Assembly (NCBI GenBank): GCA_030248295.1
Contig: JASANH010000626.1
Coordinates: 2,467,198 to 2,531,197, forward strand
Origin: Mesodorylaimus sp. YZB2_4
Taxonomy: Eukaryota > Nematoda > Enoplea > Dorylaimida > Dorylaimidae
Length of the DNA: 64,000 nt
Direction: 5' to 3'
In this document: positions 15,301-51,260 of the stretch, piece after piece
Layout of the letters: the number at the start of each line of letters is the position of its first letter
How positions within the stretch are numbered: position 1 is the stretch's first letter
The notes under the pieces: generated by a model
Databases searched by the model: none
The model's input: only the letters and a program-made list of their open reading frames with translations
Told to the model about the DNA's origin: nothing
Program-made: the position numbers and the translations under genes

Positions 15301-16247
15301 ACAAACTGTCATTCGATCTGACCCAACTCTACAATTTTGTTATTCAAACAGTGGGCGATCTATGGGTCATTGTCACGTCCGCTCTCACAATCTTGGTTCA
15401 TTTGGGTTTGAACGACGGTACACCCGAGGGGGCACTGAAAAGGCACCACTTGCACGCTTTATGCTTGGAGCATTTGATGATTCTCCTGTTTCGTCATCCT
15501 GGTATATGTCGCATTGAAAAAGTGCACTGCACTCGCATATCCGCTTTGATTTTATGTTTCCGCGGGGCCAACATGCTTCTGGCACTGTTCCAATGCTTTC
15601 ACGTGCACTACATCATGACCGGTGTCACCCGCGGCAATTGGGGCTGGGCCGACAAATGGTGGCCCTATACACTGATGGGATGGGGACTACCCGCTGCCAT
15701 GTCTCTTATCATTTACTTCTATCAATTTGAGGAATTGAGCACTGGCTTCTCTTGCATGCTCGACTGGGAAACGAATGTTGTCTATTGGCTAGCCTATATC
15801 TTACCCGTAGTGCACCTGAGTGTGTTCAAACTGGAGCAGGCTCGACTGGGACAAGATCTGCAAGAAATCCAAACTGGAGCAACGGTTGATCGATATCAGT
15901 TGCAGGTTGCGAAAATTGGTCGCGTTGGCACCATCTTCGTGGTTTGCCTAGCACCTGCCAGTTATTGTCTCACGTCCTTGTCCGTCTTCTACGGACATTA
16001 TTTGTTGTACACCTTGGGCTTTGTTGTGAACATAGCTTTGGGCACAACTATCCTTTGCAGTTATGTTATCCAGAATCCACTGGCGCGCAATTACGTTTCG
16101 GACAAGTGGCAGTCGGCGAAGAAGGCGCCAAAAATTGTGAAGGAAAAATTGTTCCCACCTAAAAAGACAACCCTGAAGGGACCCAAAGACATGTTTCAAT
16201 GGAGACGCGTTTGGAAAAAAGGCAGCCCACCGCTTGAACCAAAGTAA
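12400..16247 (+). CDS. C-type lectin/EGF adhesion-like seven-helix receptor
   Basis: Exons 12400-12511 (signal peptide, ending VVPSAIAITNNA), 12907-13455 (C-type lectin domain with GYLANI, WIGL and EWVDRKC, then EGF), 13509-13980 (second lectin-like domain, then EGF), 14047-14574 (degenerate lectin-like block) and 14641-16247 (fourth lectin-like block, two EGF-like units, seven membrane helices, short basic tail). Helix 4 carries GWGLPAAMSLIIYF, the GWGxP motif of family B/adhesion receptors. The last EGF is followed after only about 20 residues by helix 1, so there is no GAIN/GPS domain. Other junctions are phase 1, but 13980 to 14047 is out of phase by one base. Either there is an indel, or a secreted form ends at the TAG at 13985-13987. 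Role inferred: surface ligand sensing. Confidence 0.7.
12658..12800 (+). mobile_element. SINE head fragment in intron 1
   Basis: Matches only the tRNA-like head and the CTTGCACGCCA..GGGTGACTC part of the SINE family, with GGTTCAATCCCCGG as B box. It lies within intron 12512-12906 of the lectin receptor, in the same orientation. The rest of the SINE is missing. Confidence 0.7.
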
Positions 16248-19414: not shown

Positions 19415-21120
19415 ATGGAGAGTGCATATCGAAGCAACACTGATCGTGAGTGCATCACTGCACTGAAAAAAGAAATGGCTGTAATGAAGGCGGAATGGCG
19501 CGAATGGAAATCAAGGCATCAAAGAAGAGGTAGCGACCACCAAAAAATTAGTCCCTTTTTCTAAATGAATAAAGAGGCTTTTTAGGGTGCAGAGTCAGCG
19601 TTGGATATAAGATGGCGGAGGAAGTGACGGCTATCGTTGGTTTAAGGGAAGCAATTACGTCAAGAAATCTTCTTCTTCGCTGTGTTTGGATATGCCTTCT
19701 CATTCTTGGCATTTGTGCCACTGCCTACGATATGTTTGAGATTGGGTCAGAGTATCTGCGGCATCAAACTGCAACCAGTGTAAGCTACGATTCTTCTCCT
19801 GGGTCGCGATGATGCTGGCAGGTTTCTGGATGATATAACCCTGTGATGTTTCTCGCCAATATGCACTAGCTATGAGTTAGGTATGTATGTGATGGAAAGA
19901 ACCATTTTCAGGTAAAATTCGCCGCTAGGCCAGCCTATGATTTCCCACCATTGGTCTTATGCCCACCTAATTGGCATTGGCTCGATGTGGACAAAGCCTT
20001 GTCATTGGGGCTGTCTCGAGATGGTCTGGCATATTCTCTGGGGTATTTCGACTATTATCATCAATTAAAGCTTCAAAATGTCAAACCAGCTCGAAATGCG
20101 TTTCATGATTTCTATAATCAGAAAAAGTACAGTTCGTTCCTTGAGTATCTCAGGGAGCTGACCATTGAGCCTGAGGTAATTGACTCACCGGACAGTCTTC
20201 TCAATGATTCGACATCATCATTTTATTTTTGTGAAGGCTGCGCCCAAAACGGGTTTAGCAAGGAATATGTAGCATACGGAATGTGCTATGCAAATTTTTT
20301 AAACCCCGCATACCCACACTCGGTCAGCAAATCGAACCAGAGGCGTATAGTCATTGGTGTCGAGGATCGGATAAGAAATCTGACCAGGGAAGTTCCATCG
20401 CGCTGGTCTCTCCAAGTCTGTTCAACTCTCAGTTACTATGGCCCACAATGTCGATCGGTTTCGCTGTTGGCGGGATTTCAAAATATCGTGCAAATAAGCG
20501 TCTCAGAATATGACATGCTTGGCGCGCCCTACAGTACATGTTTAGAAAATACCGCCGAAGATTACGCTCCCGATCGGTGCTGGACAAAATGCCAGAATGA
20601 ACTTATGAGAAAGCGTATTTCTTGCGACATCCTGTGGGCATTCTCACCTCAGAATGAGCGTAACTTATCTGACTATTGCAACTTTTTCGATCCGCCAAGA
20701 AATAATACTCGTATGTCGGTAAGGCAATATTATGCAAGACGTCGAAATAGCTCTTCTGCCGCAAAGCCTGAGCCTGATGAGGGCTGCTTTGAGAACTGCA
20801 AGTTTCCATGCAAAAGAGTGGCTTATCATATCACTTTAGAGGATCAATACAATTTGTCTGAAACAGACATCTGGGGCTTCAGTGATTTTGCTCTTCGTAA
20901 TCCCAATGTGTCAGTAGTGCTTGTGCAAGTGCTTCATGCAGCTACCATCGATGGAGGAGTTGCAGTTTGGACTGAGGTGAAAACATTCTCCATATCGCAG
21001 TTGGTGGCAAATATTGGGGGCGCACTTGGATTATTTATTGGCGGCACTGTACTTACGGTAGCGCAAGTTATTTTATTTTGGATTTCATACATTTTTGAGA
21101 AATTTTTTCGAACACCGTAG
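19415..21120 (+). CDS. DEG/ENaC-family sodium channel subunit, copy 1
   Basis: Exons 19415-19529, 19586-19779 and 19912-21120 join in phase (1, then 0) to about 505 residues, a usual size for the family. The first exon encodes a charged, possibly coiled-coil N-terminus. Exon 2 carries helix 1 (LLLRCVWICLLILGICATAY). Exon 3 opens with YDFPPLVLCPPNW, equivalent to the FPxVTxC motif after helix 1, then the cysteine-rich extracellular domain and helix 2. The pore region reads GALGLFIGGTVLTVAQV. The usual G-x-S filter is G-G-T, and the acidic residue normally after it is glutamine. The N-terminal His-Gly gating motif appears as Val-Gly. Proteins of this family form trimeric, amiloride-type cation channels; gating stimulus unknown. 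Confidence 0.88.
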
Positions 21121-23718: not shown

Positions 23719-24877
23719 CGACCTCTCCCAATCGGTTTTTTGTGAGCAGATGAAAAAGAGAACTCATAATATCAAGCTTAATGGATGTACCCGGGGCGCG
23801 CTCGAAACCTGATTAAGGCTTAGGGCCCTGGATCGTTTCCTGTTATAGAGAAGTCCAACTGTTGATCCAGGTGACTGAAAGCAAACCCCAATACACTGAG
23901 AATTACTCGATACGACCCACCCACTGCATTGAGTCATTTTAATAATATACGCTAACCAAATAAAACTGAATAATAATTCATATAAAGAATATTTTTAATG
24001 GCGCTCCCAATGTGTAATTACTTGTCGACATTGCTATTGCTATTGATATACTTCGGTAGTCAAGCACTCTAAGGAGCACTCCAAGGGCGCCACACACTAC
24101 ATGGAGCATGGGGCTTTGAAGCAATCAGAAATGGGCCTTTGGAAGGCAGCATGAATAGGGCCCTCTATTGATCGCCATTGCCACTGTAGAGGGTTGGGCA
24201 GGCATGCAGTGGATTCTGTCATCTACGAGTGAGTGTGTGCTACGAAGAGACAGAAGAATGAGATCAGGACAGGATACGAAAGATTCGCCCCTTTCGAACC
24301 ATTCATCATATTACCCCAGAATAGAAAGATGTGGGGAACAAGTGAGGTCAAGGTGTACCAAAGATATAGCGAGGCCACAGAAGAGGTCAGGGGTTTCATA
24401 AAATACGTACATCGACGAGTCTGTAGCGGGTTGGATATGATAGGATAGTATCAATCCTGTAACTGCTACTGATAAGATATCATTGATGTGCAGGTGCCAC
24501 ATCTGAAACCATAGGTTACCCACGTCGTCCATGGGGATCCGTTCTAATTAGCCAGCGTAATTGTAAGATAGGGTTGACCCCACCGGTACAGCAGGTATGC
24601 TCCAACCCCTTCGTTCTCTGTCTCAAACTGGCCAGGTCAGGGTGTGGCCTGTCTGCTTCCTGTTGGTGTGCCAGTGCCTGGTTCAAACTGCTGCCGCGCG
24701 CGGCCGCTAGTAAAGCACTTGTGGATTCTGGTGTCTTGTTTTGGGTCGGGCGCAAGCCCTTACAAGTACCTGTTTTACAAGAACATCACGAAAAGCATAT
24801 AAAAGCTGTACCGTATTTGACAGGATTTATACAAAAAAATGATCAACAACTCAGCAGTAATCAGAGTCACGAGGGGA
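23719..24877. other. Intergenic, nothing recognised
   Basis: No splice-compatible coding exons with known motifs on either strand. Confidence 0.45.
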
Positions 24878-25869
24878 CTAACAAAAACCACAAGATTTTA
24901 AACATCGATGTTGCACAAGTAGAGGTTTGTAGCAGCTGTATTTTTCCCATCTTAGCTTTGGAACAATGTTTCTTTCACACCATTTTGTAAATGACGTGCC
25001 ATCAGTGGCCACCTGGTCTCGGCATCCATATGACGGAACAGTTAACGTCTTTTCGGCTTCAGCAACTGCAAAGAGTAAATTGGACAATAATTTTTTAGGG
25101 GGTTGGTCACCAGACAGTACCCTCAATTTTTTTAGCCTGTCTGCACCTGTAGCGGGCCAGCACTCAGGATATGATCACGAGTAGGAGAGTCGTGAAGCAC
25201 CTACGTCCCAGGATGGGAGCGGGCGAGAAAGGGGAGCCCTTCCTGACTGGTTTCAAGGACCAGGCTACTGATTCTGTGTGGTGTCGGCGTCTTTTAACTT
25301 CTGGCTTCATGTGTGCCGAGTGTCCCTGGCGGTCAAGACCTGCAAGGTTTATGGTTTTCTGGACCTTCCTCATCGACAGGGACCTAGGACATGACCAGTG
25401 AATCGCCATAAGCAATGACCAGGGGACGCCAAACCACCTGCACCAACGCGGACGCTGGGCTTCTCACTCACGCTATCACCTGAAAGAGATCTTTCCAAAG
25501 ACAACTCGTTTGCGCATGTTTTGCAACACCAGATTCTTCCAAAAAACCAATTCTGCAGGCAGTATTCGGTGCCATTACGCATCGCTAAACCCCTCGAACA
25601 GAAATAATCGCTTTTCGTGTTTGTGCACTGCGGCAACTTTGGCCGCGTCTGATACGATGGAAGACAAGGATTGCGGGCAGTACACGGCTGACCACCACCT
25701 TCAATCTCTTTCAATTTATCGATCACAAATTTTTCAATTTCCAACACGCATTTGCCTCTCCCAAACCATAAGGCGAGAAACATCACACCTAAATGTAGGG
25801 CGGAATTGGAGAATCAGACAGATGGACTTAAAGAGATGACTTACAGAAATATGATCCTTGAGCAACCAT
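24878..25869 (-). CDS. Small secreted protein with a ShKT-like C-terminal domain
   Basis: Exons 25869-25845, 25788-25480 and 25065-24878 join with phase-1 introns to about 173 residues. The start gives a signal peptide (MVAQGSYFCVMFLALWFG). The C-terminal 50 residues hold six cysteines ending C-x3-C-x2-C at the terminus, as in ShKT domains. An upstream cysteine-rich block with a second C-x2-C may be a diverged copy. ShKT domains are common in nematode secreted proteins, where they serve as potassium-channel-binding or disulfide-stabilised modules of mixed function. Intron 2 is about 410 bp. The specific role is unknown, and nothing here shows that it is a toxin. Confidence 0.68.
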
Positions 25870-27113
25870 TTTGAGACGATAAGACAAGTTCTTCACTCGC
25901 TGTTTTCAAATTATTGGTGACATGGAGCATTTCAGAAGCTTATATACCGCTTGGACTTTACAATGACTATGTCTGATCGTGAGGTGAAATATCATTTTGC
26001 ATAGTAGTCAGACAACAAACAGTGACAGTGCCGATGACCCAAACACACAGATATTGGTATCTTATGCTTAGCTTGGTAATTATTCACATCGAAATGTGTT
26101 ATGCAGACCAACACTCCAAGGGGCAAACAAGGAGTTGTTTTGAGTGCTTGGAACAAACTAGTCATGACCAATACCATGCGAGGCATCAACAACAGGTTGC
26201 CCCTTACGACACGTTTATGAGCAAATACAATTAGAAAATTTAAAATACAAACATCAGCGCAGCTATATAGTCAATCTGAGTGAAAGGAGTAAGGCAGCAG
26301 ACAGCGACAGAAACAAATGTTAATTCCATAAATATGTTCAGAATTTGCCAGTCAATACGAGTAGACAGAAACTAAAGGAGCAAGGTCGTAATCACGCCGA
26401 CGATTTCAAGACTGTGAAAGGACAGCAAATCTTTTTTCACATACGCTTATCAGGTTCACAGACGTTAGGAAATCTTGGTTTCACCTAACAGTAATTTTTC
26501 GAGGATTGCTGATTCGATCCTTATCACATGGGCGACTATGATGTCAGCCGCGTTTCTGATCATAAATACAAAATAATAAAAGCAGATAACTATGATCAGG
26601 GCGTGAAGTAACTTGGCAATCAGGCAAGACATCGAGATTGAAGTCATTATTGATTGACACTAGCGCAATATTGACGCATTGGCACCGCATTCACACAGTC
26701 ATAGACTACATGTTCGCCCTGTACATTACTATATAAGCAGTCTAGCTAGTGGGCCTGAAACTCTTTAATCTCGAATTGCCTGCTGATGCTGATGCATTGA
26801 AATCACCGAGTTAGAAACGTATTTTTCCAGGTGACCTAGTTAAAGCGGGTGAACAAACATTCGCCTATGACCTATCCTGGTTTACAAAAGAGGACTCATC
26901 TCAAGCTAGATTTTTCCATTCTTGGAATGGCGCCTTGTATGCATTGCTGAGCACTGTTGGTATTTCCAAAATACACGAGTCTTTATTTTTGGACGTGCAA
27001 AATACCGAATATTAGCAATTTGGGCGCCACCGAAAAGGCTAGAATAAGAATAGGGCACATACTCGCAGGCGATCTTACGTCATTAAAGAGAACTGTAATA
27101 GGAACTAGCCAGG
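25870..27113. other. Intergenic, one small hydrophobic frame
   Basis: The only coding hint is a minus-strand 60-codon frame at 26465-26647 with a hydrophobic stretch (IIVICFYYFVFMI). It has no family match, and I do not call it as a gene. Confidence 0.35.
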
Positions 27114-30100
27114 TCATTTCTTCAGTTTTATATAAATAGCCATGCTAGTGAAGACAACGATTTCGAATAAAGAAATCATGCCAAGGCCCAGCCAATTGCC
27201 AATATTGGCAAAGATATCGGACACCAGCTGCAACAGCTAAAAACAAAATGATTTTATATTTTTGAAAAATAGAAATGGACAGTTATAGCCTCGTACTGTG
27301 AATTCTCCAAATCCCATCATATGAACGCTCGTTAATGTTCCATAATAGATATCGATGCGACTGTAGCTGCTGCTGCAAATAGGGACACACTGTTGGAACA
27401 ATTAGACATAAAACAGGATATGCCAGCATACTTTACACTGCTCTTGCAGTTGCTGTAATTGCTTCCCTGTAACCCCTCGCACATTGGCGGCTGGAAAAGA
27501 TGTCAGTAACTAACGCATTTTCAGCTGCATAAGTTCCTTACTATTATGTTAGGCGCTGGCCAAGCCGCTGATGTTTGCAGAATATTATGTACAGATGATC
27601 TAAGTATAGTACGACCGACGTATTGTAAATGCTTCTCCAGACAAACTCTTTTCACTGCTTACTTGCAAGCTGGCAAACATTGGCATGCAGCGACTGACAT
27701 TTCGTCAGCGGCATTCTCGCTGGCGTTATCAATACAAGCTTCTAAACAAGTGTTGCAGTGAGTGTCTGTAAACTAGTAAAGCAAAGCTGCTTACTTTTTG
27801 TTATATCACAATAGACGCCCCCTTCTGGCAATGGGTAACGTGGATCAGAGCACTCGCAGAATTTGCTCACCATTCGCTGATAGCAGCTGGCCATGCATGT
27901 CTGAAGCCAATGTACCCAACATGTGAATCTCTACATGTGTGGAAGAAGCAATGAGATTCAGAATCTTAAATTCGGGCCCTCAGGCGCCTCGATTAGTAGC
28001 ATGCTGCAGTTCTGCCTTGTTTATACAAATGAGCTAGGAATCTCTGCTTGACCAATGTGTAACTCAAATGAGTTATTCACCCGCTGCCCTAAGAGTTACT
28101 GTTTACTCGAAACCCACAAAATCGGATTGTTTTTCTTACCTCCACAGAATAAGACTTGTTGACGTAAAAGTTGTCCGCCTTGCTCGTTGTATTAGTTGCA
28201 CAGGGTTCGTACGGCTCACCTGCGATTAAAACCTCCACCTGTGCAGAGACGTGCTTGGTGATTGTAATGTTATACAGTATATGTGTTATTCTTTTGTATT
28301 GAATGTACCTTGCTGACAGAGAAGCTGTAGTAGAAGCCGGCTGTGCATAAAACTGCCAAAGTGCTCATCATCGGCTGCTGATCAGGTTCATGAAGCAGGA
28401 TCTTGTATCCGTTGCTCATAATAAAAGGGAGAAAATCCGATGATGGCATTTGTAAAATCATACTCAAACCCATCTTCTGGCCTGCTCTAACTGTAAAGTG
28501 AGTGTTGGCGATTGGGTTGAATGTGTAGCAGTTGCCGTAATTTGGGTCTGTGAACTTTAGAAAATCCCTGTAAAAGAAGCGATTAGTGTCAATTCTGTCG
28601 GCGCAAATATGTTTGGCCAACTTTGCCATGTCGCATGGGCTGGATCTGTACTGGCACCAATGCACAAAATCGTCGAGCTGGTAGCCGAGTGACGAGAGAA
28701 GATCAGCATCCAGACCCAAATATTGAATAACATACGGGAGTGTGTCTTCCAATTGATTTGCCCAAGACAGCGAGTCTATTTCAGCTGAAGGCTAGAATGG
28801 TTTCTTTCTTCTATTTAGTACAGTATCGGTCAAGCAGGATGTCCAAAACTTACTGTAGGGATCTTTTTTAACTGGCATGCGTTATCGCTACACGCAGTGG
28901 CCTCTGTAGTGGTAGTATCGCCTGACAGATCAGGAAGTGTGACCCTGTTCTTGGCGAAAATAGTTCTTTTTCTCAGTCTCGGGTACAGACTTCGTTTTCG
29001 CAGAACAGTGACTGTAGCACTGGACGTCTGGGAGGAATAGTTGACGTCATCCCAGCCAATGTGATCTAATGAAAGGTTTGATCGAGTTTCAGCTTCTGTT
29101 TAAGTAACACAAAACATTGAGTGGTCTGAATACCTTCTGTCATAATTGCTTCTCTGTTTCTGATGTCTTCCCTTGCAGAAGAATCATGGACATTTTCTAG
29201 AGCACTGCCAGATGTAGAGGAGAAGCTATAACTATCTTCGTTTTGGGGGCTGGAAAATTCTTCAATACTTCTCGCTCTTTCCGAGTACATCAGACCTTTC
29301 TCGTCAAAAACTGCATGGCTTGTTTCGAGTGCTTCTGTTAAAAGAAGTGGGCTTTCTGCCGCTGAAAACGTACTTGTGGCCTGTTTAGTTGTAAAGATCG
29401 TAGACAGACTTAAAAATGTTCTTCTTAATAGCTTGGATGTCTTGCTTTCAGTTAGGGGTCCCCAAGAAGCAGTAGTCTCTTGCGGAAGTGGTACTGTAGT
29501 TAGCATTCCGTCTTCAATTGACAGACTAGAAGTCTCCAAATGCATTTTCAGTGGAGGCTCTACATGTGTATTTTCAGTGGAGTGATCTTCTTGGATGGCT
29601 TCTGTAATTGTCTGCAATGTTGTGGTAAAATTTGCACACCAGCGCAGCTTGTACTAACTACACTTGAAGTTGTGTCAGTGCTTGTGATGCCTATAAGTTC
29701 CCCTCCTGAAATGACTGAAGTATCTAGTGTGCTACTGATACCTTGAAACGTCGTTTGCGATGCACCAATCCTTCGATAATCCTCCATGCCAGCTAAAACA
29801 GCGAAAGAAATATGGCTGGACGTCGGCTCTGACGAAGCGTGATGGATTGCTGCTACTGAGTTGCTAGTACCTATTAAAATGTTTTGATCTACTTTGATTT
29901 CAGAACATTCCAGTTGCATGTTCCAGTGTCGAATGATTAAGCTTTGGCTGATGATTTCATCCGTGTGTGTCCAAACCCCTGGGTCGTCCACATCGCAAGA
30001 CGTTACGGCAGGAGCACCAACTGCGCCTGGGTCTGACAATTGGGACACCTTTGTCAGAAAAGCAGCTGGCGGGGCGGCATAGTTATTTGGTGCTTTTGTG

Positions 30101-33100
30101 ATGTTTATGGTCTGAACGACACGATCAGCAATGTTTCCACAACTGTCCGTTAAATGCCATGTGCGCTCGATCAAGGATGAACATTTTGTGGTATAAACGG
30201 AGTCCTCGTACGACAAGTTGAAGGGAGTGCATCTTGGGTCAACAACTGCCGATGCTGGTTTTGGACTTTTCTCATCTTGTGGCAGCGGTATTGTATGAAA
30301 ATTGCATGAGAATATTTGGCAATAAGGATCAGGCACATTGATACGGGGGATCGTAGCCGCCAGATCTTCATCAATTAGTCCATCTTGGTCGTCGTCCAGG
30401 AAGTTTCGGATTTCTTCATCAATCCAGCCGTCGCAATCGTTGTCCTTGCCGTCTGGTGGCTTGCCATCATCCGATTTGGTACAGAAGTGAGAAGCAGGTG
30501 TGAGTAGCCTTCCAGCAGTGTATGCATAGGAGCACTTGTATCCGTATCCGTACATAGTCAGGCTGAACCGCGCGCTGACATCGGCATGCGTGATTCGGAA
30601 GGAAGTCGGGACACCTTTGCAGGCAAATTGATACTGGAAAGCGGTCAGTGACGTTCCAGGAATTTGATGCGGTTCTAAGGGGCCCAGAAACGTTTGATTG
30701 TTCAGCAGAAGCCCAGAGGCCTTGGAAGAATCGATTATGATTTTCATAAAATGGACAGAAAATGTTGGATGACAAGTAACGACAAAATAGTTTCGGGAAA
30801 ATGCGTCTGTTGGTGGCAGCAATAGTAGAGACGGGTCTGTTTGTTGGCCTATAATAGGCATGGCTGGTACAAGCGCCATAGCAATCTTATCGTTCTTTAT
30901 CGTCAAAAAAACGGACTTTCGCCTCTGGCGGACACAACCAGTCAGAGAATATCATTTTTCTTCATTTTTCTTACCTGGATATGAGATTCTCGTAAGAATT
31001 TGAGCTACTAGTATTGGCTGATTCGAAGTCAAGTACGAATATTCATTGTGCACGGTGAATATATCCAGATATTGTCCAGCATTCAGTGTGAACGACTCGT
31101 ACTTGGAGATTCCAAAACGCTCGACTTTTGTCCCATTCATCAGAGCAAGTACTTTGAAAAATTCATATGGCATTGCACAATACTTTTTGTCAGTGCAGCA
31201 GCTTGGTTTGCTGACGGTTGGTGTTTCGTGTTGGAATGGCACGAGTGGGAATTTTTTTCCGAATGTCGTCGTTGGTGGAAGCTAGAACACATACAAGTTT
31301 TCTAGCGATAAGTTACAGGACATCATCTGGGTTGATCAGGAGTTGTTGACTCTAAAAATCTATTCAATCACCTCATCAGACAATCATATCGATCACCGAA
31401 TCATACTGAGCTGATCATTATTGATGATTGGTAAGCCAATTATAGATATTTCAGTCAATTATCATTTTTCGAATTCCTATCAGTCATATCGATTTTTATC
31501 ACTATTTTCACATTGGCTCTTTTGTATCAACCAAAAGCACTTTATCACAACAATAGTAGCTGCTTATAACACTGCTTTTTCCATATCTTTCTAATCATCA
31601 AGGCCGCAGGTCTGGTGCATTGGATAAACCTTATTGCGCAAAGGGCACAAAATATTTTCTTTGAGACTACGCCTCTCTGTGCAGGAGCCCAGTTTCTAAA
31701 AAGCAGGTCCGCGAGCTCCGGGCTCTACATAGAAAATTGTGCTATAGCCCTTAGTTATAGAGGCTCTGTCCGTGAGAAAGATATTTTCTGCCCTTTAAGC
31801 AAAACGGCGCGGTAAAATCATGTCGAATGCACCCCCTCCATGCGCGGCAGACATGTGGTCTTTGACAGGAAAACAGAACGGTGCGATAATTAGCTGTAGA
31901 TGAACCATAACTTATGTAGATGAGTGCTTTTGACTGATTAGATTTGAAAATACTGATATGATATGGCCGAGATGAAATAATCCGACCAACAGAAATTTGT
32001 CATGGTAAGTGACTGATCGATTGATGGTCGACCAAGAGAGGGATAATTAGCTAGTCGTTTGCTGCTCGATATGATCGGATGATCTAACAAAATGATCGGG
32101 CGATTAATTAGTTGATCGATCGCCCCATCACATTAATAAGTCCATCAGTCAACTGGTTGGCCGATCGACCAGTCGATCGGGTAATCGATCGACTAATAAA
32201 AGTGATCTGGTTGATCAACCTATATCCTCATATCCACAGTCTTGCGCACAGCTCCGACATGTGGCGTTCTTACTTTATCACAAGCAAACAGTTGCCGTAA
32301 AGAACCCGACTATTCTTAAGCTAAGTTGACTTAAACCAGTTTTCTTAATGAGGACTTGTCTTATCTTTTATGCAACGGGGCCCAGATACCGTAAAATCCT
32401 CGTCTAAGCAGCTTTCTCATTACGCTGATTAGGACAGCAGGAGTCAAGTATCTCCCAGGTCTTTCATATGCGTTACAAAGTGTAGCACCGAATGTAACAG
32501 TAAAAGATAAGATTCTGTTTCTTTCTTTTGCATTAAAGGAAAGAGCTTGTTTCACATGAAATGCTGAAGTCTGTTTTGGCAGAATGGCAAAAACAGTATA
32601 CAGTATACAGTGGTCGAAAATATCTGCAGTGGTACCAACCCTTTTACAGCAGGGGAATGAAAACAATCGTAGATCATGGAAACAATGGAAACAAACAGCG
32701 ACAGGGACCCTACCTGCTCAATGACAACGTCGCATGCTTGGCATCCCGCTGGATAACGCAGGCAGCCGACACCCGTCATCACAGCAATCGGTTTATCCGA
32801 TAGGATTTTCGTGCCTGACATATCAGCATTGAGGGGAATGTCGATGACATCCATCTCATTAGCTTTGTACGGAGTTGCCTGTCCGGCTGGCCACACTACG
32901 TTTACCGTCGTGTCGTTGTATGCAGCGATGATATGTGCTCGGGACCCGAATTTCGACGTGGCGCTGTAGATCTCCATGAGCATGTACTCCATGCCCAGCG
33001 TATCAACAGGAAACAGTAACGTGCCGTCGCCAGTCGTGCCGCCAAGATGCATGGTATAAGCCACGAAATCGTGATCAGCTTCTATCTTTAATCCAGGTGG

Positions 33101-33956
33101 GATTTGATTCTTTGGAACTGCGAATTGATACACCTTGGTGTTATCGATTGTTATAACTGTTGTTGAGTAGGATGGTTTTTCAAAACTCCATCTTTTGTCT
33201 GTGATTGTGATGTTAAAAGGGAAGGAGGAATCGGTTGCGAGCATAAGTAACTGGACTGCTGAACTGGATGGAGTAGCATCGGTATCTTGAAGAAATGTTG
33301 TGTAGAATAATTTGCCAACATTGTCTGCGATGCCTAAATATACAGTATACTGAAAAACATGCTTACTGCACTGTGTAGATTCATACACGAATACCTGACG
33401 GTTCCGCAATTTGACGACGTCGTCTTGCCAGACTTGGTGGATTCAGCTCAGCGGATAGATTGACAGCTTGGGAAACCATGTGAAGGGCTGTTAAATTGGG
33501 GTCATTGCTCCAGTTCTGTTGGCCTAGTATGATAGCTGAGCTAACATCGGCAATCTAAACCAAGACATATGATTGCAAATCCTATGGTCTTATGGCTGCA
33601 AACTTACAGAATTGAACAGCTGCGGCACCTTCTTTTTTAATTCTGAGACCTTGTAAGGGTTCAAACTGCAGAATGACACTGATGGGAATTCCAAAGATCC
33701 AGTCTCAATCTAAAATCGGAGTTCATCGCCCTGGGAACGAATTCTGAATTTGGACTTCTACTCTTACCAAAATATCCGTTCCAACTGGAAAATCAAGAAA
33801 ATGGATCACCGAATGGGCGAGTAAGGTCACAGACACAGCAAAGAAAAAAAGGGAAACTAGAGACCAAAGAATTTTAACTGTTAATGTTTGTGCGTCAACA
33901 ATGATAGAAATTATGCGAAGGGTGGAACTAAGGAACCCTTCCTTCACATACTCCAT
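27114..33956 (-). CDS. DEG/ENaC channel with IgGFc-binding, metal-binding and HYR-like insert
   Basis: Exons 33956-33768, 33709-33608, 33554-33395, 33333-32714, 31281-30975, 30863-29662, 29611-29134, 29095-28854, 28791-28309, 28238-28140, 27900-27795, a variable pair, and 27236-27114. All phases agree; about 1420 residues. Order: helix 1 with DFPVGTDIL (1-63); FPSVSFCSLNPYKVSEL (64-97), a DEG/ENaC hallmark; RRRR (141-144); IgGFc-binding domain (about 152-560) with VIEQLPPTTTFGKKF; acidic DNDCDGWIDEE and DDDQDGLIDED (about 592-627); HYR-like block with RTWHLTDSCGNIADR; Ser/Thr-rich linker; two LRKR sites (1051-1063); DEG/ENaC finger with DPNYGNCYTFN; cysteine-rich domain; helix 2 with WLGLGMISLFEIV. 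The insert sits in the finger. C. elegans EGAS channels, with EGF repeats there, are the nearest precedent I know. Role inferred: ligand- or matrix-gated cation channel. Confidence 0.85.
27297..27765 (-). other. Two alternative exon routes in the channel's conserved cysteine region
   Basis: After exon 27900-27795 (phase 1) two routes keep frame. Route X uses 27765-27663, ending AACQCLPAC, then enters at 27372. Route Y uses 27490-27432, ending EQCK, then enters at 27389 and reads CVPIC. Both give the C-x-C-x2-P/I-x-C pattern of the family and then SSYSRIDIYYGTLTS. The intron before exon X would be only 29 nt, which may block that route or show that X is not used. Confidence 0.5.
31330..32225. 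repeat. Intronic repeat with GATCGAT arrays at both ends
   Basis: Within the 1.4-kb intron 32713-31282 of the fused channel, dense GATCGAT/TGATC units lie at about 31330-31500 and 31990-32220. Both outer edges carry GGTTGATCA in inverted orientation. This looks like the other array-ended elements, but I find no convincing 8-bp target duplication. Confidence 0.45.
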
Positions 33957-35181
33957 GGTGGCACTGAATAAAAATCTGGACCTGTCGTTAAGCCTACATG
34001 ATAGCGCCTTGGCGTTTTTAAGCTCACCATCAAGCTCTCACTCGTAGTTATGGTTAGCTACCAAAAAATTCTTTATTTGTAAGTGGATAAAAACAATGTA
34101 AAGGCCATTGTTTGTTGCCATAAATTATTACGCCTCGTCAAATATTTCCGCATCACAGCTATTGCACGGCTAGCCAGTTTTATTAGGGACTCATAAAAAT
34201 TTTACTTTGGCGATAGTTTTTTCCCGCTATCTTTTTTATTGACCATCAGCAGCATCAATTCGTGGCAGTTACTTCTCTGGAAAACGATTATTGCCAAGAG
34301 ACGCTTACCATCAACACTGGAGCAAACTTTTTGACGAGACTTTATGCTTTTGCTTTATTGGGCCAAAAACAGGGTTTGTTACCAGTTTCCCTGCTGAGGA
34401 TGTTATTGGTGTTATGTTTGCAGCCTGTATAGGTATGTAGCTGTAGTTTTACGGGCTATTGGATGCAATTCTAACGGAAGCTGATCTGAAATGACCGAGT
34501 CCGTATTACATGAAATACTTTACTGTATGTTTTTCCCGTTTTAGGCCTGATTCTTGACTATTTTGTTCCGCAGCCGATCGAGGATCACCTTGAAAGCGTG
34601 GCACAGCAATTCCTCTGTGTGTCCTTGGGATTCCTGGCGGACTGGTTTCTCAGACAGATGTTCAAGAGCCGCTGTATTCGCTCTTCCGTCCTCTAATAGG
34701 CACATCGAAGTCAAAGGTGCCCCGACAGTTACAGTTATACAACCTTGTGTACAAACCAGTCTTAATCACCAGAGATACGGTGATGGCAATCAGCCAGTGG
34801 GGCCGACAAACGCTTTCTCAGTGTGATACGCCAAGGAAATTCAAGTCGATAATAATCTGTCGCAGTCAGGAACTGGTTGTGAGTTGAAGCAACAAAGTAC
34901 TAAATGTGGTTGACCATGCGTGACAACACTATCTCCATTATCTCCAAGGTCCTCGGTCCATGAGCTAATGTCTGCATGGTTGAACTTCCCTTACAGTCAA
35001 GTTCAGGCATGTACATAAAGCGCAAACTGACAATGAGAGATATAAGTACAGAGCATACCAGTATACTGTAGGCACTGTAGACTGAATATGGTAGCTCCGT
35101 TAAATCCATTTATCCGCACTGTTGGCGTTATAAGGCTGGTATCAGCAACCTAAACTCAGGCGATAGTCAAGGAATCATGAT
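33957..35181. other. Intergenic upstream of the fused channel
   Basis: About 1.2 kb. It contains a minus-strand 69-codon frame (35109-34900) with a hydrophobic N-terminus (LVCSVLISLIVSL) that I cannot connect to other exons. The promoter of the fused channel should lie here. Confidence 0.4.
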
Positions 35182-35189
35182 CAGGAAAC

Positions 35190-36118
35190 TCACGGTCGGA
35201 TTGGTTCCGTATGTTTTGGTTCGGTTTCGGTTTCGATTTCGGTTCTAGGTAATCGGTTCGGTTCAATTCTCGGTTCTTTCGCTTTCGATTCTAAACCTTT
35301 CAGTTCGGTTCGAGAGCACTGGTTTTTTCTGTGCAAATTAGCGTTAACTTAGACCGTTATCTGTGGTATTGTACCTCCACAAAGCATGCTGCATAGCAAA
35401 TCTCCATCATAGAAAATGAAAGCAAGCCACATAATATGCTGAAGCTGAAAAATCATATGAATTCTAATCAAAATGCTCATTACGCTCGCGCGCAAGCACA
35501 CCTTCATTACCACTAGGCTGGCGTATGAATCAAGCGAGCTAGGTGTTACCTAGTCTGCAAGGCAATAATTCCACAGATGCAGGTTCAGATTGCCCTAAAA
35601 CTCAACTTCCCAGAATAATTCAACAAAAAACCGCTTCCCAGACACGCAACAATATTCTAAGCAAGCCACGATGGCGCATTTGAATACCATATCAGTATTT
35701 TAAAGGCGCCAAAAACTTCCATTGCTTCGGCAAGATCTCAGCTTTTCATAATGGAAAACACCCTTTGGAGCAGCGGCATTGTCGAGAGAGCTAACAAGAA
35801 GACAAAGTGCCAATATCTGAAGATGCCCAAGTATGCCCTGAAAATCTCAGATTGCCCCGGAAATGTCACTGCCCCAAAACCTGCCCCGACAGCTTACAAT
35901 GGCTGAGATTTAGGGCAATTGCCCTGAACCTGGCAACACTGCAGCGTGTTCCGCTGCCTGTGTGCTGCTAGCGCGTGTGAAAGGCTGGTGCATCCATGGA
36001 TAAAGGGTTGTGCGACACCAGCTGCTTGGTGCACCATGGAGCTGCAACAACGCCGAAAGAGGTGGAACCGAAATTTCGGTTCGGCTCGATTCCTGGAACC
36101 GAACCGATCCGCCCGTGA
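35190..36118. mobile_element. hAT-like non-autonomous element with GGTTC arrays
   Basis: Perfect 8-bp target duplication CAGGAAAC (35182-35189 and 36119-36126). The inverted ends read TCACGGTCGGATTGGTTC on the left and, reversed, TCACGGGCGGATCGGTTC on the right (16 of 18). GGTTCGGTTTC units follow inside the left end (about 35215-35310) and their complements precede the right end (about 36060-36105). No transposase frame. Confidence 0.8.
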
Positions 36119-36426: not shown

Positions 36427-39011
36427 TTAGTCTTGCACCAAATTACAGGGCTTAAGGAATTCTTGACCAACTTCTCTGAACCATTGATTTGCAACCCATT
36501 TCGATCCAGCAATGACTGGACATCCGGCGTGTATCGTATTCGTGTCCACAGCACCCGATGGCCGCAAATTGTACCAAAAGATGGCATCGTTCTACAGCAC
36601 AATTATCATTAAGGTAATGCTTGCCTACTGCAACCAAAATTTTATCAGTGATTACTTTGGATGGAGTGACTACTAAATCGAGTCTGGGAAAAGCGGTTCC
36701 GCCGCCATGGTCTGGTTCATACAGCTGAAAGTAGCGAAAGCTGAAATTTAGGGTTCGATGGTCAGAAGACTGCTTACATAGAACATGAGAGTCGCTATGC
36801 GGTTACCGCGGGCCCTATATTCAGAAATATTCAATATTCTTATGGGGTCGTCTGCCTGAAAAAAGTGATAAACTTTCTTCTGCTCATTGAAGCTACAAAT
36901 ATGCGAACTTTGAAGTAATCATAATGTGGAATGTATTGTCCACCAATTCCATACATTGAAATCTAAACAAAACATGACTATGCTCTATGTAATCAAACGT
37001 TGTCAGTAGCTCACGATCAGACCTGTAACACTTCTGCAGAGCCGAGATCTAAGCCAGTAAATGTAGATGCGCGCATTCGAACTCGCTCCGCTACCTCGTG
37101 GTCCTCATCACTCAGCCAGCCACTGAAATATGAGTCTTGCAAATTTCTTGCTTTTTGAGCATCATGGCAACATTCATTTGACAGGGACTTACCTGAAGCT
37201 TTCTCTCGTGTCTCGGTTAATTTCCTCCTTCGCCGTGGTACCTGCTACCCTTGACAAACTCATCTACAAACATGCTGGCATATTTGGCGGAAGATCTTAG
37301 AAAAAGGACAAGAGATTGCGTACCCTGTGTCTCACACTCTCTATCATAACCTGGATCTCCTCGTCGCTAATTATCTCCCGGAAAATCACTATAAAAGGGT
37401 CATCCGCCATTTTCTCTACCTTAGCAGGTGCCAGCATCAAATAAGGATGCGATCGGCCATAAAAGCATTTGAATTTCGGGTCGGTTAATCGTATCTAAAC
37501 TCATAATAATGAAAAAGAGTCATTTGCGCAAGCCCACCCAGCCCAGACCCACCATATGTTGATATTCATGCCGGCATAACCTTTCGAAATTCTGCTGGTG
37601 CGGGAATTTTTCCCAGTCGAGTCTGTAATTCACGCTTTCTGGCATATTATTATAGTCGAACCATTTGTCTGCCCTCGCCTGGTCTAAGAGAGCTCCGAAT
37701 TGTGGATGGGCATTAATAAATTCTTGTTTGTCCTCTGGCATTGCTATTTGATAAAATTCTAACGCAATTTTTTTAGCCCACTCAAAGTTGCCTTTTTTAT
37801 CCATGGATAATGCTAGGTAAGGCAAGACTTTGGTTTCATTGATGCTAGGCGGGGCTTCCATTCTCGAACGAGAATAAGCTTCCTGAAACCACATCAGTGC
37901 GTGGTAATGATCCTTGAGCGTGAACGCTATTTGGCCGAGACTAAAGCAGTCTTGGGCTGCAGAGAAATAGTTGATAGGAGGACACGGTGGTAAAAAAAAG
38001 TTCAGTCTTCTCACCGCTAATATTCACCACGCCGAAGCCAGGGACGCGTCCAGAGGCGATATTTGCGGCAGATAATTCATAGACATCTTGGATTCGGAAC
38101 AAGTTATAGGCAACGTCATGTATGTGATCTGGTTCAGGAATCGGCATGTTCGAATCAAGCAGGTCTGAAATGGGCTGTTATTGTCAGCCTGTGGTGCCCT
38201 CAGGATGGCTGGCAGAGCGGGGTTGGTTTAAAGTAATTGGGCGTCTGGGTCCGGCATTTGCGCTTAATACTCTGTGGAGTCATTGCGCCGTTTGCCGAAC
38301 GTTTCTTGGCTCAGCAAAAAGAGTGTAAAAAATACACCCTAAGGTTTATATTTGCTGTCAATGCAAGCGCTTTACCTGATTTTCGTGACATTCCTGGCCT
38401 AATAAACGCTTGCACTGACAAAACGAAAATTGCTTTCTCTGACCTGGATTTAAAAACTTTTAATTTGAATTAGGCCGATGCTACTTTGGTCCAGGTTGGA
38501 GCTGGGGACTTGTTGGGTTTGCCCAGGAGCTGTACAAATGGCAGAGGTCTAGTAGCTCCGCTACAGCGGCCCTTTGTTGTGATAATGCCGCAGCAGAGGT
38601 AGCATTCGATCAGGAGCACAGCTGAGTACGATCTACTTACTGGAAAAAGATGTGGAAGACATGGTTGTGCTAAGATTTTGCCATTCTTCTACCAACAACT
38701 TCACGTCATTGACTATGCTTATTAAGTTCGGACTTGCAGAGTCATGCCAACGCGATCTTTCTTCCAATCTTTCAGCATGCCTACAAAAACAGCTGCTCTG
38801 TCACTTGCACAGCCAACAGAACAGAAAAGGCTTACTTTGCCAGTCGCTCCAGCTTATCCTTTTCTTGAGCCACGTAATCTGTCAGGATTTTGGCCATCTT
38901 CGTTTCCATCGCTTGCACATAATTCGGGTGAATCGCAACTAACTGCGAGCCCGCGGGCACGTTTGCAATGCAACTCAAGGCTAATACGACAGCAGTGTAC
39001 GGAGACCACAT
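36427..39011 (-). CDS. Prolyl 4-hydroxylase alpha subunit, copy 1
   Basis: About eleven exons on the minus strand. Exon 1 (39011-38836) gives a signal peptide (MWSPYTAVVLALSCIA) and the start of the N-terminal dimerisation domain. Exons 38780-38641 and 38164-38015 continue it (NLFRIQDVYELSAANIASG). A TPR-like peptide-binding exon lies at about 37970-37540. The catalytic part has IPHYD (first Fe-binding His and Asp, near 36930), GGGTAFP, and HAGCPVIAGSKW with the second Fe-binding His and the 2-oxoglutarate-binding Lys. It ends GQEFLKPCNLVQD at TAA 36427. The enzyme hydroxylates proline in procollagen-like proteins in the ER lumen, using Fe(II), 2-oxoglutarate and ascorbate with protein disulfide isomerase as beta subunit. 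An upstream longer start at 39053 is possible. Confidence 0.85.
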
Positions 39012-40707: not shown

Positions 40708-43485
40708 CTACATGCATGCAGGTATTTTTATAATTTTCTTGAAAATTGCGACGATTGCAGTGAATGCAGCTGTCACGACCAACAGTATAACATGTACTGT
40801 GTCTGTCCAGCTACCAGCCGAGTCTTGCACCAAATTACAGGGCCGTCGAAATTCTTGACCAACTTCTCTGAACCATTGATTTGCAACCCATTTCGATCCA
40901 GCAATGACTGGACATCCGGCGTGTAACGTATTCGTGTCCACAGCACCCGATGGCCGCAGATTGTACCAAAAGATGGCATCGTTCTACAGCACAATGACCA
41001 TTAGCGCAATAGCATATATAATACAGTATAACTGAAGCCGCCAAAGCTCCTACTAATTACCTTGGATGGTTTGACTATTAAATTAAATGAGGGAAAAGCA
41101 GTTCCACCACCATGTTCTGGTTCATGCAGCTAAAAGTAAGCGAGTGCTGAAATTCATTTGGTTAAATGGTCAGAAGAACGCTTACATAAAACATGAGAGT
41201 TGCTATGCGGTTACCACTGGTGCTATCTTCAAAACTATTCAGGTCGTAAGCCTGAAACATAAAACAAAGAAACTGTCTCCTGGTTATTTAAGCAAATAGT
41301 CTTCGCACTTCAAAGTAATCATGGTGTGGAATGTATTGTCCACCAATGCCATAAAGTGAAATCTAAACAAAGTATAGCTATGCTCCGGCCATGAGCTGAT
41401 ACAGCAGCTATCGGACCTGTAAATGCTCTGCAGAACCGAGATCTAAGCCAGTAAATGTAGCCGCGCGCTTTCGAACTCGCTCCACTACCTCATGGTCCTC
41501 ATCACTCAGCCAGCCACTGAAATGACAGCCTTCAAAATTTCTCAGGTTTTGAGTTGTCCCTGCACAATCTTTCATTCTGATGTAACTCACGTGAAGCTTT
41601 CTCTCACGCCTCGATCAACTTTATCATTACCCAGGGTACTTATCACTTTTGACACGCTCATCTGAAAAGTTCACTTTAAGGTAAAGTCTTGGAAAGCGAC
41701 AAGCGATTACAGTACATACTTTGTGTTTTACGCTCTCTAAAAGGGTCTCGATCTCTTGGTCGCTAATAATCTGTCGAAAAATCACCACAAAAGGGTCGTT
41801 CGCCATTTTTTCTACCTTTGCAGGAACCAGCATCAAATAAGGATGAGTTCGGTCATAAAAGCACTTCAATGCTGGATCGGTTGGTTGTAACTAAACACAT
41901 AATGATGGATGCAATTCGCAGAAGTTAAAGCTAACTCACCATCTTTTGATATTCCTGTCGGCACAACCTTTCGAAATTCTGCTGGTGCGGGAATTTGTCC
42001 TGGCCAAGTATGTAATTTACTGTTTCTGGCATACTATTGTGATTAAACAATTTGTCTGCCCTCGCCTGGTCTAAGAGAGCTTCATATTGTGGATGGGCGT
42101 TAATAAATTTTTGTCTGTCCTCTGGCATTGCTATTTGATAAAATTCGAATGCAATTTTTTTAGCCCACTCGAAGTTGCCTTTTTTATCTATGGATAATGC
42201 TAGGTAAGGCAAGAGTGTAGTTTCATTGATGCTAGGCGGGTTTTCCATTCTAGAACGAGAATAAGCTTCCTGAAACCACATTAGTGCGTGGTAATGGTCC
42301 TTGAGCGTGAACGCTATGTGGCCGAAACTGAAGCAGTCTTGGGCTACAGATTTATGGGAAATCCTGTATGAGAAGATATCGATAGAAAAGTTCAAGTTTT
42401 CTCACCGCTAATATTGCCGACGTCGAAACCAGGGACTCGTCCAGAGGCGATATTCGCAGCAGACAATTCATAGACGTCCTGGATTCGGAATAAGGTATTA
42501 GCAACGTCATGTATGTGATCTGGCTCCGGAACTGGCAAGTTCGAATCAAGTAGGTCTAAAATCGGCCTTCAGTCACTGCTAGTCCAGCAGTGCCCAAGAC
42601 AAGGTCATCGATCAAAAACTTCCCGATTCGACCGGCGGGTGGCAAAGTCATTGCGGTTCATATATGCTGCAGAGTCTCAATGTCATTTTCTTCTTCACTA
42701 AAATACCCCTGGTTCTTTTTTTTGCACAGCTGCTGAGTGGAGCTTTTTCACCACGCCGAAAACCCCATGGCAGCTAACGAAGTCATCCCACCTAGTCCAT
42801 GCCTGGTACATCACCCTGACGCGTGACGCTCCGAACTGCCGGCTCCGTTTAGAGTATCGATTGCCAGTCGAGACTCTACAGTTTTAGTCGTACATTTAAA
42901 AAAATTAATGTGGAATGTGCTGGCGTTACGTTTCAGAAAATGACCCAGGTTTGGCAGAGAAATTTGTTAAATCTACGTACGAGCTGATTCAATCAGCGCT
43001 ATATGTGCAGTTAGTTTATGACGGGAAGTAGTTGCTCCATCAGCACTTTGTACAGTGTTATGATGTTTGAGATGGCGGCATAAAAAAATGGGTTGCTGGA
43101 GGCCGATATCCTTACTGGATAAAGATGTGGAAGCCATGGTTGTGCTTAGAATTTCCCATTCTTCTACCAACGACTTCACGTCATTGACTATGCTTATTAA
43201 GTTTGGAGTTGCGGACTCGTGCTCACGCGATCTTTCTTCCAATCTTTCAGCAATCCTATCAAATATCTCCTCTGTCACTTGCACAGCCAACAGAACAGAA
43301 TAGGCTCACTTTGCCAGTCGATCCAGCTTATCCTTTTCTTGAGCCACGTAATCTGTCAGGATTTTGGCCATCTTCGTTTCCATCGCTTGCACATAATTCG
43401 GGTGAATCGCAACTAACTGCGAGCCCGCGTGCACGTTTGCAAGGCAACTCAAGGCTAATACGACAGCAGTGGAAGGAGACCACAT
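40708..43485 (-). CDS. Prolyl 4-hydroxylase alpha subunit, copy 2, with C-terminal membrane segment
   Basis: Same exon pattern as copy 1 and very close in sequence: signal peptide from 43485 (MWSPSTAVVLALSCLA), N-terminal domain, TPR-like exon about 42395-41931, YIPHHDYF with the His and Asp Fe ligands near 41330, GGGTAFP, and HAGCPVIAGSKW near the end. Where copy 1 stops after NLVQD, this copy continues about 37 residues. The tail contains a hydrophobic run (VHVILLVVTAAFTAIVAIF) followed by KKIIK, ending at 40708. That would give a C-terminal membrane anchor, which soluble ER-lumenal collagen prolyl hydroxylases do not have. Catalytic residues are intact. The two copies are a recent tandem duplication. 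Confidence 0.83.
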
Positions 43486-50439: not shown

Positions 50440-51260
50440 GCTGGCCTTATGCACTTTTGACACTTTACACTGTCTCGCGGCCAATACATATAAGCGCGCT
50501 GCTGGCCGTGTCTCGTCATTCCGATTGACTGCTCGTTCACGAATGATGGTCTTGGCTGCGCAAATGTGGGTCTCGTTGCCCACGCCTGTCAGTCCGTTGC
50601 CATCGGCAGTGAGCCAGTTGCCAGCGAATGTGGGTCTTGTTGCCCACGCCGGCTGGTCTCGTTGCAGTCGCCCACGAATGTTGGCCTCGGCCAACGACAG
50701 ATGGGTCTGTGTATCGGAATGGCTGCGATGTGACGACCTCCCCGTGGTGCAGCTGGAAACTGGTCTTCCGATCAGGCCAACGTCACACAAGAAAGAAAAG
50801 TCGAATACAACGAGCGACGGACGAGACCACGGACGGGGGCGAGCTGCTGAGTATGCTTCGTTTACTTAGTAGACTGACTCCTTAACCGACTCCTTAACTT
50901 TCAGGCCCGACTTCCGATGCGAGTGGCATATGTCTGGATGATCGGGCCGGAGAAGATGGTCTCGTTGGATTGATCTCTAACGTGCTCGCCGACAATGACG
51001 GACTCGGTGAGGTGAGTTTGGTCTCTTGCACTCCCTTCTCGCTTCTAGCTAATCGAGCTTGCTTTTCAGGTATCAAACCTCAAGTCCGCACTCGTTGGGG
51101 CGTCACGACGAGAACCCGAGCAGTCAAGCAGCGAATACAGACAAGAGTGAATCTGCGTACATGGCCAAACCAAACGATGAATCAAGCTCCAACTCTGCCG
51201 TCGACCATTGGGCGTGTTGGACGAAGGCACGATCGTCGGAGTGACAGCCAGTGATCTCGA
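50440..51260 (+). other. Duplicated transcription-unit-like segment, copy A
   Basis: About 300 bp (50465-50770) is nearly identical to 53320-53625; flanking parts are more diverged. A TATAAG motif lies near 50492, followed by an ATG at 50544, TTTCAG acceptors near 50904 and 51070, and a donor near 51010. The last frame ends SSSNSAVDHWACWTKARSSE at 51244. Copy B ends SSNSAVDQWASRKKSRSPV, so the terminal reading frame is kept. The first part contains internal repeats of GTGGGTCT(C/T)GTTGCCCACGC. I could not build one fully in-phase model. It may be a young gene or a repeat family. Confidence 0.35.

What the first reader, a model, noticed from the sequence alone, without database searches (positions are those of the whole stretch)
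27114..33956. DEG/ENaC channel with a roughly 900-residue IgGFc-binding/metal-binding/HYR-like insert in its finger domain
Seen in sequence: splice-compatible exons run without a phase break from helix 1 with FPSVSFCSLNPYK, through an IgGFc-binding domain, acidic calcium-loop-like motifs, a HYR-like block and a Ser/Thr-rich linker, back into the conserved DEG/ENaC finger and on to helix 2. Known: C. elegans EGAS channels carry EGF repeats at a similar place; IgGFc-binding domains occur in mucus and matrix proteins. Inference: a cation channel directly coupled to an extracellular adhesive or ligand-binding module. I know of no described channel with this architecture.
Basis: partly seen in the sequence, partly recalled or inferred. 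Interest (0 to 1): 0.92.

Follow-up and report, generated by a model that had tools for sequence, protein, structure and literature searches.

The report
Ion channel carrying a matrix-protein insert
One gene, probably of an animal, appears to encode a sodium-channel-family membrane protein with the outer part of an adhesion-type surface protein spliced into it; the papers searched do not describe this, and no RNA evidence was available.

Summary
Minus-strand 33956..27114 reads as 15 exons, 14 GT-AG introns and 1419 residues without a stop (splice sites chosen by hand). Pfam splits one DEG/ENaC (ASC) domain, 156.5 bits, around a full IgGFc_binding domain, 151.8 bits. The insert starts where the mature part of a known surface-protein family starts (IgGFc, then DNDCDG and DDDxDG loops), at a phase-1 intron, and runs through two weak HYR-like repeats and a Ser/Thr-rich linker. 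Exons 4-6 are a phase 1-1 cassette. A furin-type site precedes the insert and two tribasic sites follow it, resembling the protease-sensitive loop of ENaC. The gap before the finger exon encodes no membrane segment, which argues against two genes. Two insert-free DEG/ENaC genes lie in the same window. No transcript and no second fusion gene was available. Verdict: very probably real, unusual; new variant of a known kind.

The parts
33768..33956 (-). Exon 1: start codon, N-terminus and TM1 (residues 1-63); SSTLRIIS stands where ASIC1 has SSTLHGIS
33608..33709 (-). Exon 2: post-TM1 strand FPSVSFCSLNPYK (residues 64-97)
33395..33554 (-). Exon 3: probable finger helix-1 region (inferred) ending in SLARRRRQIAEPSG, with the only R-X-[KR]-R site of the protein (residues 98-151); ends in phase 1
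32714..33333 (-). Exon 4: start of the inserted module (IADNVGKLF...) and IgGFc profile positions 1-117 (residues 151-357)
30975..31281 (-). Exon 5: middle of the IgGFc domain (residues 358-460)
29742..30863 (-). Exon 6: end of IgGFc (profile 204-297), acidic loops DNDCDGWIDEE and DDDQDGLIDED, two HYR-like repeats (residues 460-834); 50% identical to P0001; ends in phase 1
29134..29601 (-). Exon 7: Ser/Thr-rich linker (residues 834-990); 3' end uncertain
28854..29095 (-). Exon 8: linker with tribasic sites VLRKRS and RLRKRT (residues 990-1070)
28309..28791 (-). Exon 9: DEG/ENaC finger and palm, FTDPNYGNCYTFN (residues 1071-1231)
28140..28238 (-). Exon 10: palm, GEPYEPC (residues 1232-1264)
27795..27930 (-). 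Exon 11: cysteine-rich region CMASCYQ...FCECSDPRYPLP (residues 1265-1310)
27663..27741 (-). Exon 12: cysteine-rich region CQCLPAC (residues 1310-1336)
27437..27490 (-). Exon 13: residues 1336-1354; its codon score does not favour the model frame
27297..27372 (-). Exon 14: strand before TM2, SSYSRIDIYYGTLTSVHM (residues 1354-1379)
27114..27236 (-). Exon 15: TM2 LVSDIFANIGNWLGLGMISLFEIVVF and stop; GLG at the GxS position
26982..26987 (-). AATAAA signal 127 bases after the stop; no AATAAA on this strand between 33956 and the stop (ATTAAA occurs at 33641 and 33092)

Best explanation
This is one intact gene for a DEG/ENaC-superfamily membrane protein. The finger loop between the first post-TM1 segment and the finger/palm (the place where vertebrate ENaC has its protease-sensitive GRIP segment) has received the whole extracellular part of an IgGFc/acidic-loop surface protein, as a phase-1 exon cassette. 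Most likely working: three subunits assemble through the channel core (family knowledge), the module projects outward on a Ser/Thr-rich stalk and binds matrix, mucus or a partner cell, and tension, ligand binding or convertase cleavage at the flanking basic sites changes the finger and so the gate. Shown: open reading frame with compatible splice sites, domain order, module boundary, basic sites, altered pore motifs. Inferred: trimer, adhesion, cleavage, gating. My estimates: architecture as one protein 0.88; module works as adhesive or ligand-binding tether 0.6; cleavage at the flanks in life 0.4; it conducts on its own as a Na+ channel 0.3.
For: Open, phase-consistent 15-exon model. ASC split into two complementary pieces around a complete IgGFc domain. 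Kyte-Doolittle 19-residue windows above 1.6 occur only within residues 23-56 and 1394-1417; in the 950-base gap between exons 6 and 9 no stop-free segment of 25 or more codons in a forward frame reaches 1.2, so a separate downstream gene starting there would lack TM1. Solved ENaC and ASIC chains match both halves, the N-terminal half only modestly (best E 9.5e-05), and FaNaC1 matches TM2 at E 0.00086. The insert begins at the DNxG start that 7 of the 8 aligned relatives reaching this end share (DSxG in the eighth), straight after the exon 3/4 junction. Exons 4-6 and 4-7 are phase 1-1. R[KR]R: 4 starts in 3 clusters seen, 0.13 starts expected in shuffles; sites on both flanks with none in residues 152-979 in 0.00015 of 20000 shuffles, windows chosen after seeing the data. 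ENaC's GRIP segment lies between helices 1 and 2, with protease sites placed before P1 and probably after P2 (PMC6197857, passages).
Against: No RNA evidence. No second species with the fusion: P0001 (53% identical over 44% of the insert query) sits on a 4770-base contig I could not read. His-Gly and GxS are changed, so conduction is doubtful. The basic sites after the insert have Leu at P4 and are not strict furin sites. Intron 7 at 38 bp is suspiciously short. Intron 4 does encode hydrophobic stop-free segments (up to 1.8), so an internal start there is not formally excluded. The adhesive role rests on the kind of proteins that carry the domain elsewhere, not on a test.
Confidence: 0.62

Rival explanations
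1. Two genes or two mRNAs: TM1 plus IgGFc makes a single-pass surface protein (N-terminus inside), and the finger-to-TM2 part belongs to another transcript.
For: Several IgGFc relatives are themselves single-pass surface proteins by eye (P0002, P0003, P0004, P0008, P0032, P0066 of 13 fetched). No homologue of the linker exons was found. Intron 7 is doubtful.
Against: The downstream part would have no TM1: no hydrophobic stop-free segment above 1.2 in the 950 bases before exon 9. No AATAAA inside the gene on this strand. The two ASC pieces are complementary parts of one profile. The linker frame is long and open (2 of 5000 shuffles).
Confidence: 0.08
2. Alternative splicing: exons 4-6 or 4-7 are a skippable cassette, so the gene makes both an ordinary-sized DEG/ENaC subunit and the long form.
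For: Exon 3 ends in phase 1 and exons 7 and 8 begin in phase 1, so skipping keeps the frame. Neighbouring genes B and C are insert-free.
Against: No transcript data; frame compatibility is also expected from cassette insertion alone.
Confidence: 0.25
3. A non-conducting or purely structural DEG/ENaC relative: the core only trimerises and anchors the adhesion module, or it is a modifying subunit.
For: His-Gly is Arg-Ile; GxS is GLG and the GG before it is FA. In ASIC1 the His-Gly motif hydrogen-bonds to the neighbouring subunit's GAS belt through Ser 445 (PMC7308080, passages), so both sides of one contact are changed. EGAS subunits gave no current above controls (PMC10424705, passage).
Against: TM2 otherwise aligns. 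Neighbours B and C also depart from GxS (both GGT) and from His (VG and AG by eye; the MAFFT alignment sets those residues three columns further on), so pore motifs may vary freely in this genome. Absence of current in one expression system is not proof of no pore; the authors themselves call it inconclusive for pH sensitivity.
Confidence: 0.4
4. Assembly chimera or decaying gene.
For: Only one locus is known to me.
Against: No stop or frameshift in 1419 codons and 14 canonical introns; G+C steady at 0.435-0.442 over 24001-36000; exon 6 is 50% identical to P0001.
Confidence: 0.04

Closest known systems
ENaC alpha and gamma subunits (GRIP domain, protease-activated finger)
   Same: Same superfamily; extra segment in the finger; protease sites around part of it (PMC6197857, PMC7413742, passages)
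   Different: ENaC's segment carries a short inhibitory peptide (8- and 11-mer tracts); here about 900 residues include a separate protein family. Only the first basic site is a strict furin motif, and the pore motifs differ
C. elegans EGAS channels (EGF plus ASC)
   Same: DEG/ENaC protein combined with an extracellular module
   Different: No EGF domain here; the place of the EGF repeats in EGAS was not checked
IgGFc surface proteins with DNDCDG/DDDxDG loops (e.g. Lingula P0002, P0003)
   Same: DNxG start, IgGFc domain, paired acidic loops
   Different: P0002 and P0003 have a signal peptide and one C-terminal membrane helix by eye; here the module is enclosed by a DEG/ENaC core
FCGBP (mucus IgGFc-binding protein) and von Willebrand D-domain adhesives
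   Same: FCGBP shares the IgGFc domain (recalled)
   Different: No VWD, C8 or TIL domain in the Pfam scan. Invertebrates have no IgG (recalled), so the domain name does not tell the ligand

Membership tests
DEG/ENaC superfamily (ASC homology) | ASC profile above the curated cut-off over most of its length | tested here: met
   156.5 bits against 23.6; profile 134-455 of 455 in the whole protein, 9-92 in the N-terminal fragment
DEG/ENaC superfamily (ASC homology) | Two membrane helices at the ends with a large extracellular part between | tested here: met
   Hydrophobic windows above 1.6 only within residues 23-56 and 1394-1417; topology itself inferred
DEG/ENaC superfamily (ASC homology) | Conserved cysteines of the extracellular part | tested here: met
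   In the beta-ENaC alignment 10 of 11 cysteines of the stretch 257-450 face a cysteine, counted by eye
Canonical Na+-selective DEG/ENaC channel | G/S-X-S filter in TM2 | tested here: not met
   GLG opposite GIS of FaNaC1
Canonical Na+-selective DEG/ENaC channel | His-Gly motif before TM1 | tested here: not met
   RI opposite HG of ASIC1
Canonical Na+-selective DEG/ENaC channel | Amiloride-blockable Na+ current | not testable with these tools
   Needs expression and recording
ENaC-type GRIP regulation | Insert between finger helices 1 and 2 with protease sites around it | tested here: inconclusive
   Position fits the unmatched profile stretch 93-133; strict furin-type site before, tribasic sites after; the helices were not modelled and cleavage not tested
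EGAS | EGF-like domains with ASC | tested here: not met
   No EGF family in the Pfam scan at E up to 1
IgGFc_binding domain family | Pfam PF17517 above cut-off over the whole profile | tested here: met
   151.8 bits against 25.6, profile 1-297; exons 4 and 6 carry positions 1-117 and 204-297 (exon 6 alone is below cut-off, 20.7 bits)
HYR / HYR_4C repeat | Profile above cut-off | tested here: not met
   16.1 bits and 18.4 bits against 27; two three-strand blocks in a low-confidence model
MopE-type metal-binding motif | Profile above cut-off | tested here: not met
   14.8 bits against 27; the motif DNDCDG..DE is shared by 15 of the 111 hits
FCGBP-type mucus protein | VWD/C8/TIL repeats (recalled) | tested here: not met
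   None in the Pfam scan at E up to 1

The most novel reading that the evidence does not exclude
A DEG/ENaC-derived adhesion receptor in which a complete matrix-protein ectodomain sits in the protease-sensitive gating loop, so that convertase cleavage or pull on the module controls the finger, while the coupled His-Gly/GxS pore contact has been rebuilt: a matrix-tethered, possibly mechanosensitive subunit with non-canonical conduction, or a channel turned into a trimeric adhesion anchor that may still gate together with its insert-free neighbours.
Probability: 0.3. Interest if true: 0.82.

Novelty: new variant of a known kind. Interest (0 to 1): 0.66.

Why it matters
How DEG/ENaC channels are coupled to the extracellular matrix is a long-standing question in touch research, and the cases I recall use separate matrix partners. 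A channel-family protein that carries a matrix-type module in its own gating loop would make direct tethering testable in one polypeptide, and would show that the finger loop tolerates very large insertions. The joint change of two touching pore motifs is a second test case for what those motifs do.

Tried and rejected
Protein database searches: whole protein (the 7986 candidates sharing most words were scored, none at E 0.001) and residues 1140-1340 (104 candidates, none). These are weak negatives, since the search needs shared 5-residue words. The insert search gave 111 hits among 7037 candidates, but only proteins of about 314-998 residues could be candidates, so a 1400-residue fusion could not have appeared there; 0 of 111 matched a YGNCYTFN-like expression.

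Viral contigs for exon 9 (2 stretches matched a pattern, none a relative) and for P0001 (no match). No tRNA and no Rfam match in the window and no tandem repeat array at score 80, so the host species stays unknown. I first considered an acceptor that keeps the motif IAMALVP upstream of exon 6; by eye it gives a stop or the wrong frame, and the acceptor before CCATGCCTATT gives the clean join used.

Literature, seen as listings with titles and abstract starts: ENaC with IgGFc (4 papers), amiloride-sensitive with IgGFc-binding (1), IgGFc_binding with sodium channel (0), IgGFc-binding domain with lophotrochozoa (0), ASC domain with EGF-like and architecture terms (0), IgGFc-binding with mollusc and invertebrate (10), ENaC with exon shuffling or EGF-like (119 papers, 15 listed), EGAS terms (152 papers, 20 listed; 2 each). 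None of the listed ones describes this architecture by title or abstract start. The library lacks most subscription papers.
Full report
Observation. I read the minus strand from 35500 to 26000 and built the gene from splice sites chosen by hand. The model has 15 exons between 33956 and 27114, 14 GT-AG introns, and 1419 residues without an internal stop. The first ATG of the opening frame lies in GCCACCATGG. An AATAAA signal lies 127 bases after the stop; none lies on this strand inside the gene, though ATTAAA occurs at 33641 and 33092. Thirteen introns are 38-209 bp; intron 4 is 1432 bp.

Domains. Pfam-A gives ASC (amiloride-sensitive channel) with 156.5 bits in two stretches, IgGFc_binding with 151.8 bits over its whole profile, and HYR_4C below cut-off. 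Cut apart, both ends still match ASC: residues 1-151 cover profile 9-92 and residues 1071-1419 cover profile 141-455. Solved structures agree: ENaC, ASIC and FaNaC chains match, the N-terminal part only modestly (best E 9.5e-05). The IgGFc domain is spread over exons 4, 5 and 6, exon 4 carrying profile 1-117 and exon 6 profile 204-297. After it come DNDCDGWIDEE and DDDQDGLIDED, two cysteine-bearing HYR-like blocks and a Ser/Thr-rich linker: 28% Ser plus Thr and no Cys in residues 835-1057, against 17% Ser plus Thr in residues 152-834.

One gene or two. The gap between exon 6 and exon 9 is 950 bases and holds a 195-codon open frame; 2 of 5000 dinucleotide shuffles do as well. No stop-free segment of 25 or more codons in its forward frames has a 19-residue hydrophobicity above 1.2, so a separate downstream gene starting there would lack the first membrane helix. 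The same test does find such segments in the long intron 4, up to 1.8, one with an ATG before it; they are not part of the model. Codon scores favour the model frame in 14 of 15 exons among the three forward frames and in 13 of 15 among six; exon 13 fails, and exon 11 has a better reverse frame. The training set was small, seven exons of the same gene with the tested exon left out. Intron 7 (38 bp) is the weak joint; three other phase-1 GT sites in exon 7 (29373, 29268, 29205) could replace its donor, so the linker may be shorter than modelled.

Where the insert comes from. The insert search found 111 proteins. Fifteen of 111 carry DNDCDG..DE, and 12 of these also the second loop by my regular expression; the named ones among the 15 are from Lingula, Mytilus, Mizuhopecten, Argopecten, Owenia, Liolophura and Watersipora. 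Of ten relatives aligned, eight reach the N-terminal end; seven have DNxG there and one DSxG, in most after a signal-peptide-like stretch by eye. Here the same start (IADNVGKLF) follows directly on the exon 3/4 junction. So the insert looks like the complete outer part of such a protein, minus signal peptide and membrane helix. Exon 4 begins in phase 1, and exons 6 and 7 end in phase 1. This is the classical signature of a shuffled exon cassette (established knowledge), and skipping exons 4-6 or 4-7 would keep the frame. P0001, from an unnamed source, is the closest: 53% identical over 44% of the insert query and 50% to exon 6, with both loops and both HYR-like blocks kept. Whether it too is enclosed in a channel is unknown.

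Position and basic sites. In human ENaC the GRIP segment lies between finger helices 1 and 2; the first furin site lies before strand P1 and the second protease site is likely after P2 (PMC6197857, passages). Its inhibitory peptides bind between finger and thumb (PMC7413742, passages). Here the insert occupies the unmatched stretch of the ASC profile (93-133). The only R-X-[KR]-R site of the protein, RRRR at 141-144, stands 7 residues before the module, and two RKR sites (1022, 1031) stand between linker and finger. Shuffles expect 0.13 R[KR]R starts against 4 seen; both flanks occupied with none in residues 152-979 occurred in 0.00015 of 20000 shuffles. I chose those windows after seeing the sites, and the later two sites have Leu at P4, so this is suggestive only.

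Pore. Opposite ASIC1's SSTLHGIS the protein reads SSTLRIIS. Opposite FaNaC1's SDIGGQLGLWVGISLITLAE it reads SDIFANIGNWLGLGMISLFE. So His-Gly and the Ser of GxS are both gone. In ASIC1 the His-Gly motif hydrogen-bonds to the GAS belt through Ser 445 of a neighbouring subunit, and both motifs are called highly conserved (PMC7308080, passages).

Neighbours. Two more DEG/ENaC genes lie in the window without any insert: B, + strand, 19612-21117, 458 residues; C, - strand, about 23389-21981, at least 449 residues, its start not found (ASC E 9.2e-23 and 2e-18 for their main exons; models). They are 30% identical to each other and only marginally similar to the fusion gene (best E 0.006). All three have a phase-0 intron shortly before the FPxxxxC strand. 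B and C have GGT at the filter, and VG or AG for His-Gly by eye; the MAFFT alignment sets those residues three columns further on.

What was not possible. The whole-genome search did not complete. No RNA data were available. The species is unknown. DEG/ENaC genes with introns and IgGFc relatives mainly from lophotrochozoans among the named animals suggest an animal, though DEG/ENaC homologues also occur in a few unicellular eukaryotes (PMC10507113, passages). Literature searches listed no paper that, by title and abstract start, describes this architecture. I read only passages of six papers (PMC10424705, PMC7413742, PMC7308080, PMC7333891, PMC6197857, PMC10507113). In the limpet-adhesive paper IgGFc-binding protein appears as a BLAST homologue of VWD-type adhesive proteins, so it lends little to the adhesion reading of this module.

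Conclusion. The architecture is there at the DNA level and very probably one protein. It belongs to the DEG/ENaC superfamily by homology, but not to the canonical Na+-selective channels by the two pore motifs tested. The most likely role is an outward tether or ligand-binding subunit; whether it conducts is open.

Noticed in passing
window 19612-21117 (+) and about 23389-21981 (-): Convergent pair of divergent, insert-free DEG/ENaC genes with a GGT filter and (by eye) VG or AG in place of His-Gly; 30% identical to each other.
   Followed up: partly
window 23700-23400 (-): Open frame with a possible coiled-coil stretch (MEAVEKRIQNVESNIEKVILSMKSL) upstream of gene C's TM1 exon, perhaps an extra N-terminal exon.
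   Followed up: no
window 12888-16244 (+): C-type lectin domain (above cut-off), and EGF-like and secretin-type 7TM matches just below cut-off, in neighbouring frames: possibly one adhesion-GPCR-like gene.
   Followed up: no
window 46599-47372, 37523-38023, 41934-42401 (-): Prolyl 4-hydroxylase TPR domain in the first ORF; the other two ORFs look similar by eye, suggesting a cluster.
   Followed up: no
window 3936-4559 (-): EB module and Lustrin cysteine-rich repeat in one frame, both above cut-off.
   Followed up: no
window 50402-50866 and 53301-53699 (+): Near-identical ORF text in two places of a G+C-richer stretch (0.485-0.506), as of a repeated element.
   Followed up: no
window about 32220-32030 (-), intron 4: The one long intron (1432 bp) holds many short GATCGATC-like repeats (by eye).
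   Followed up: no
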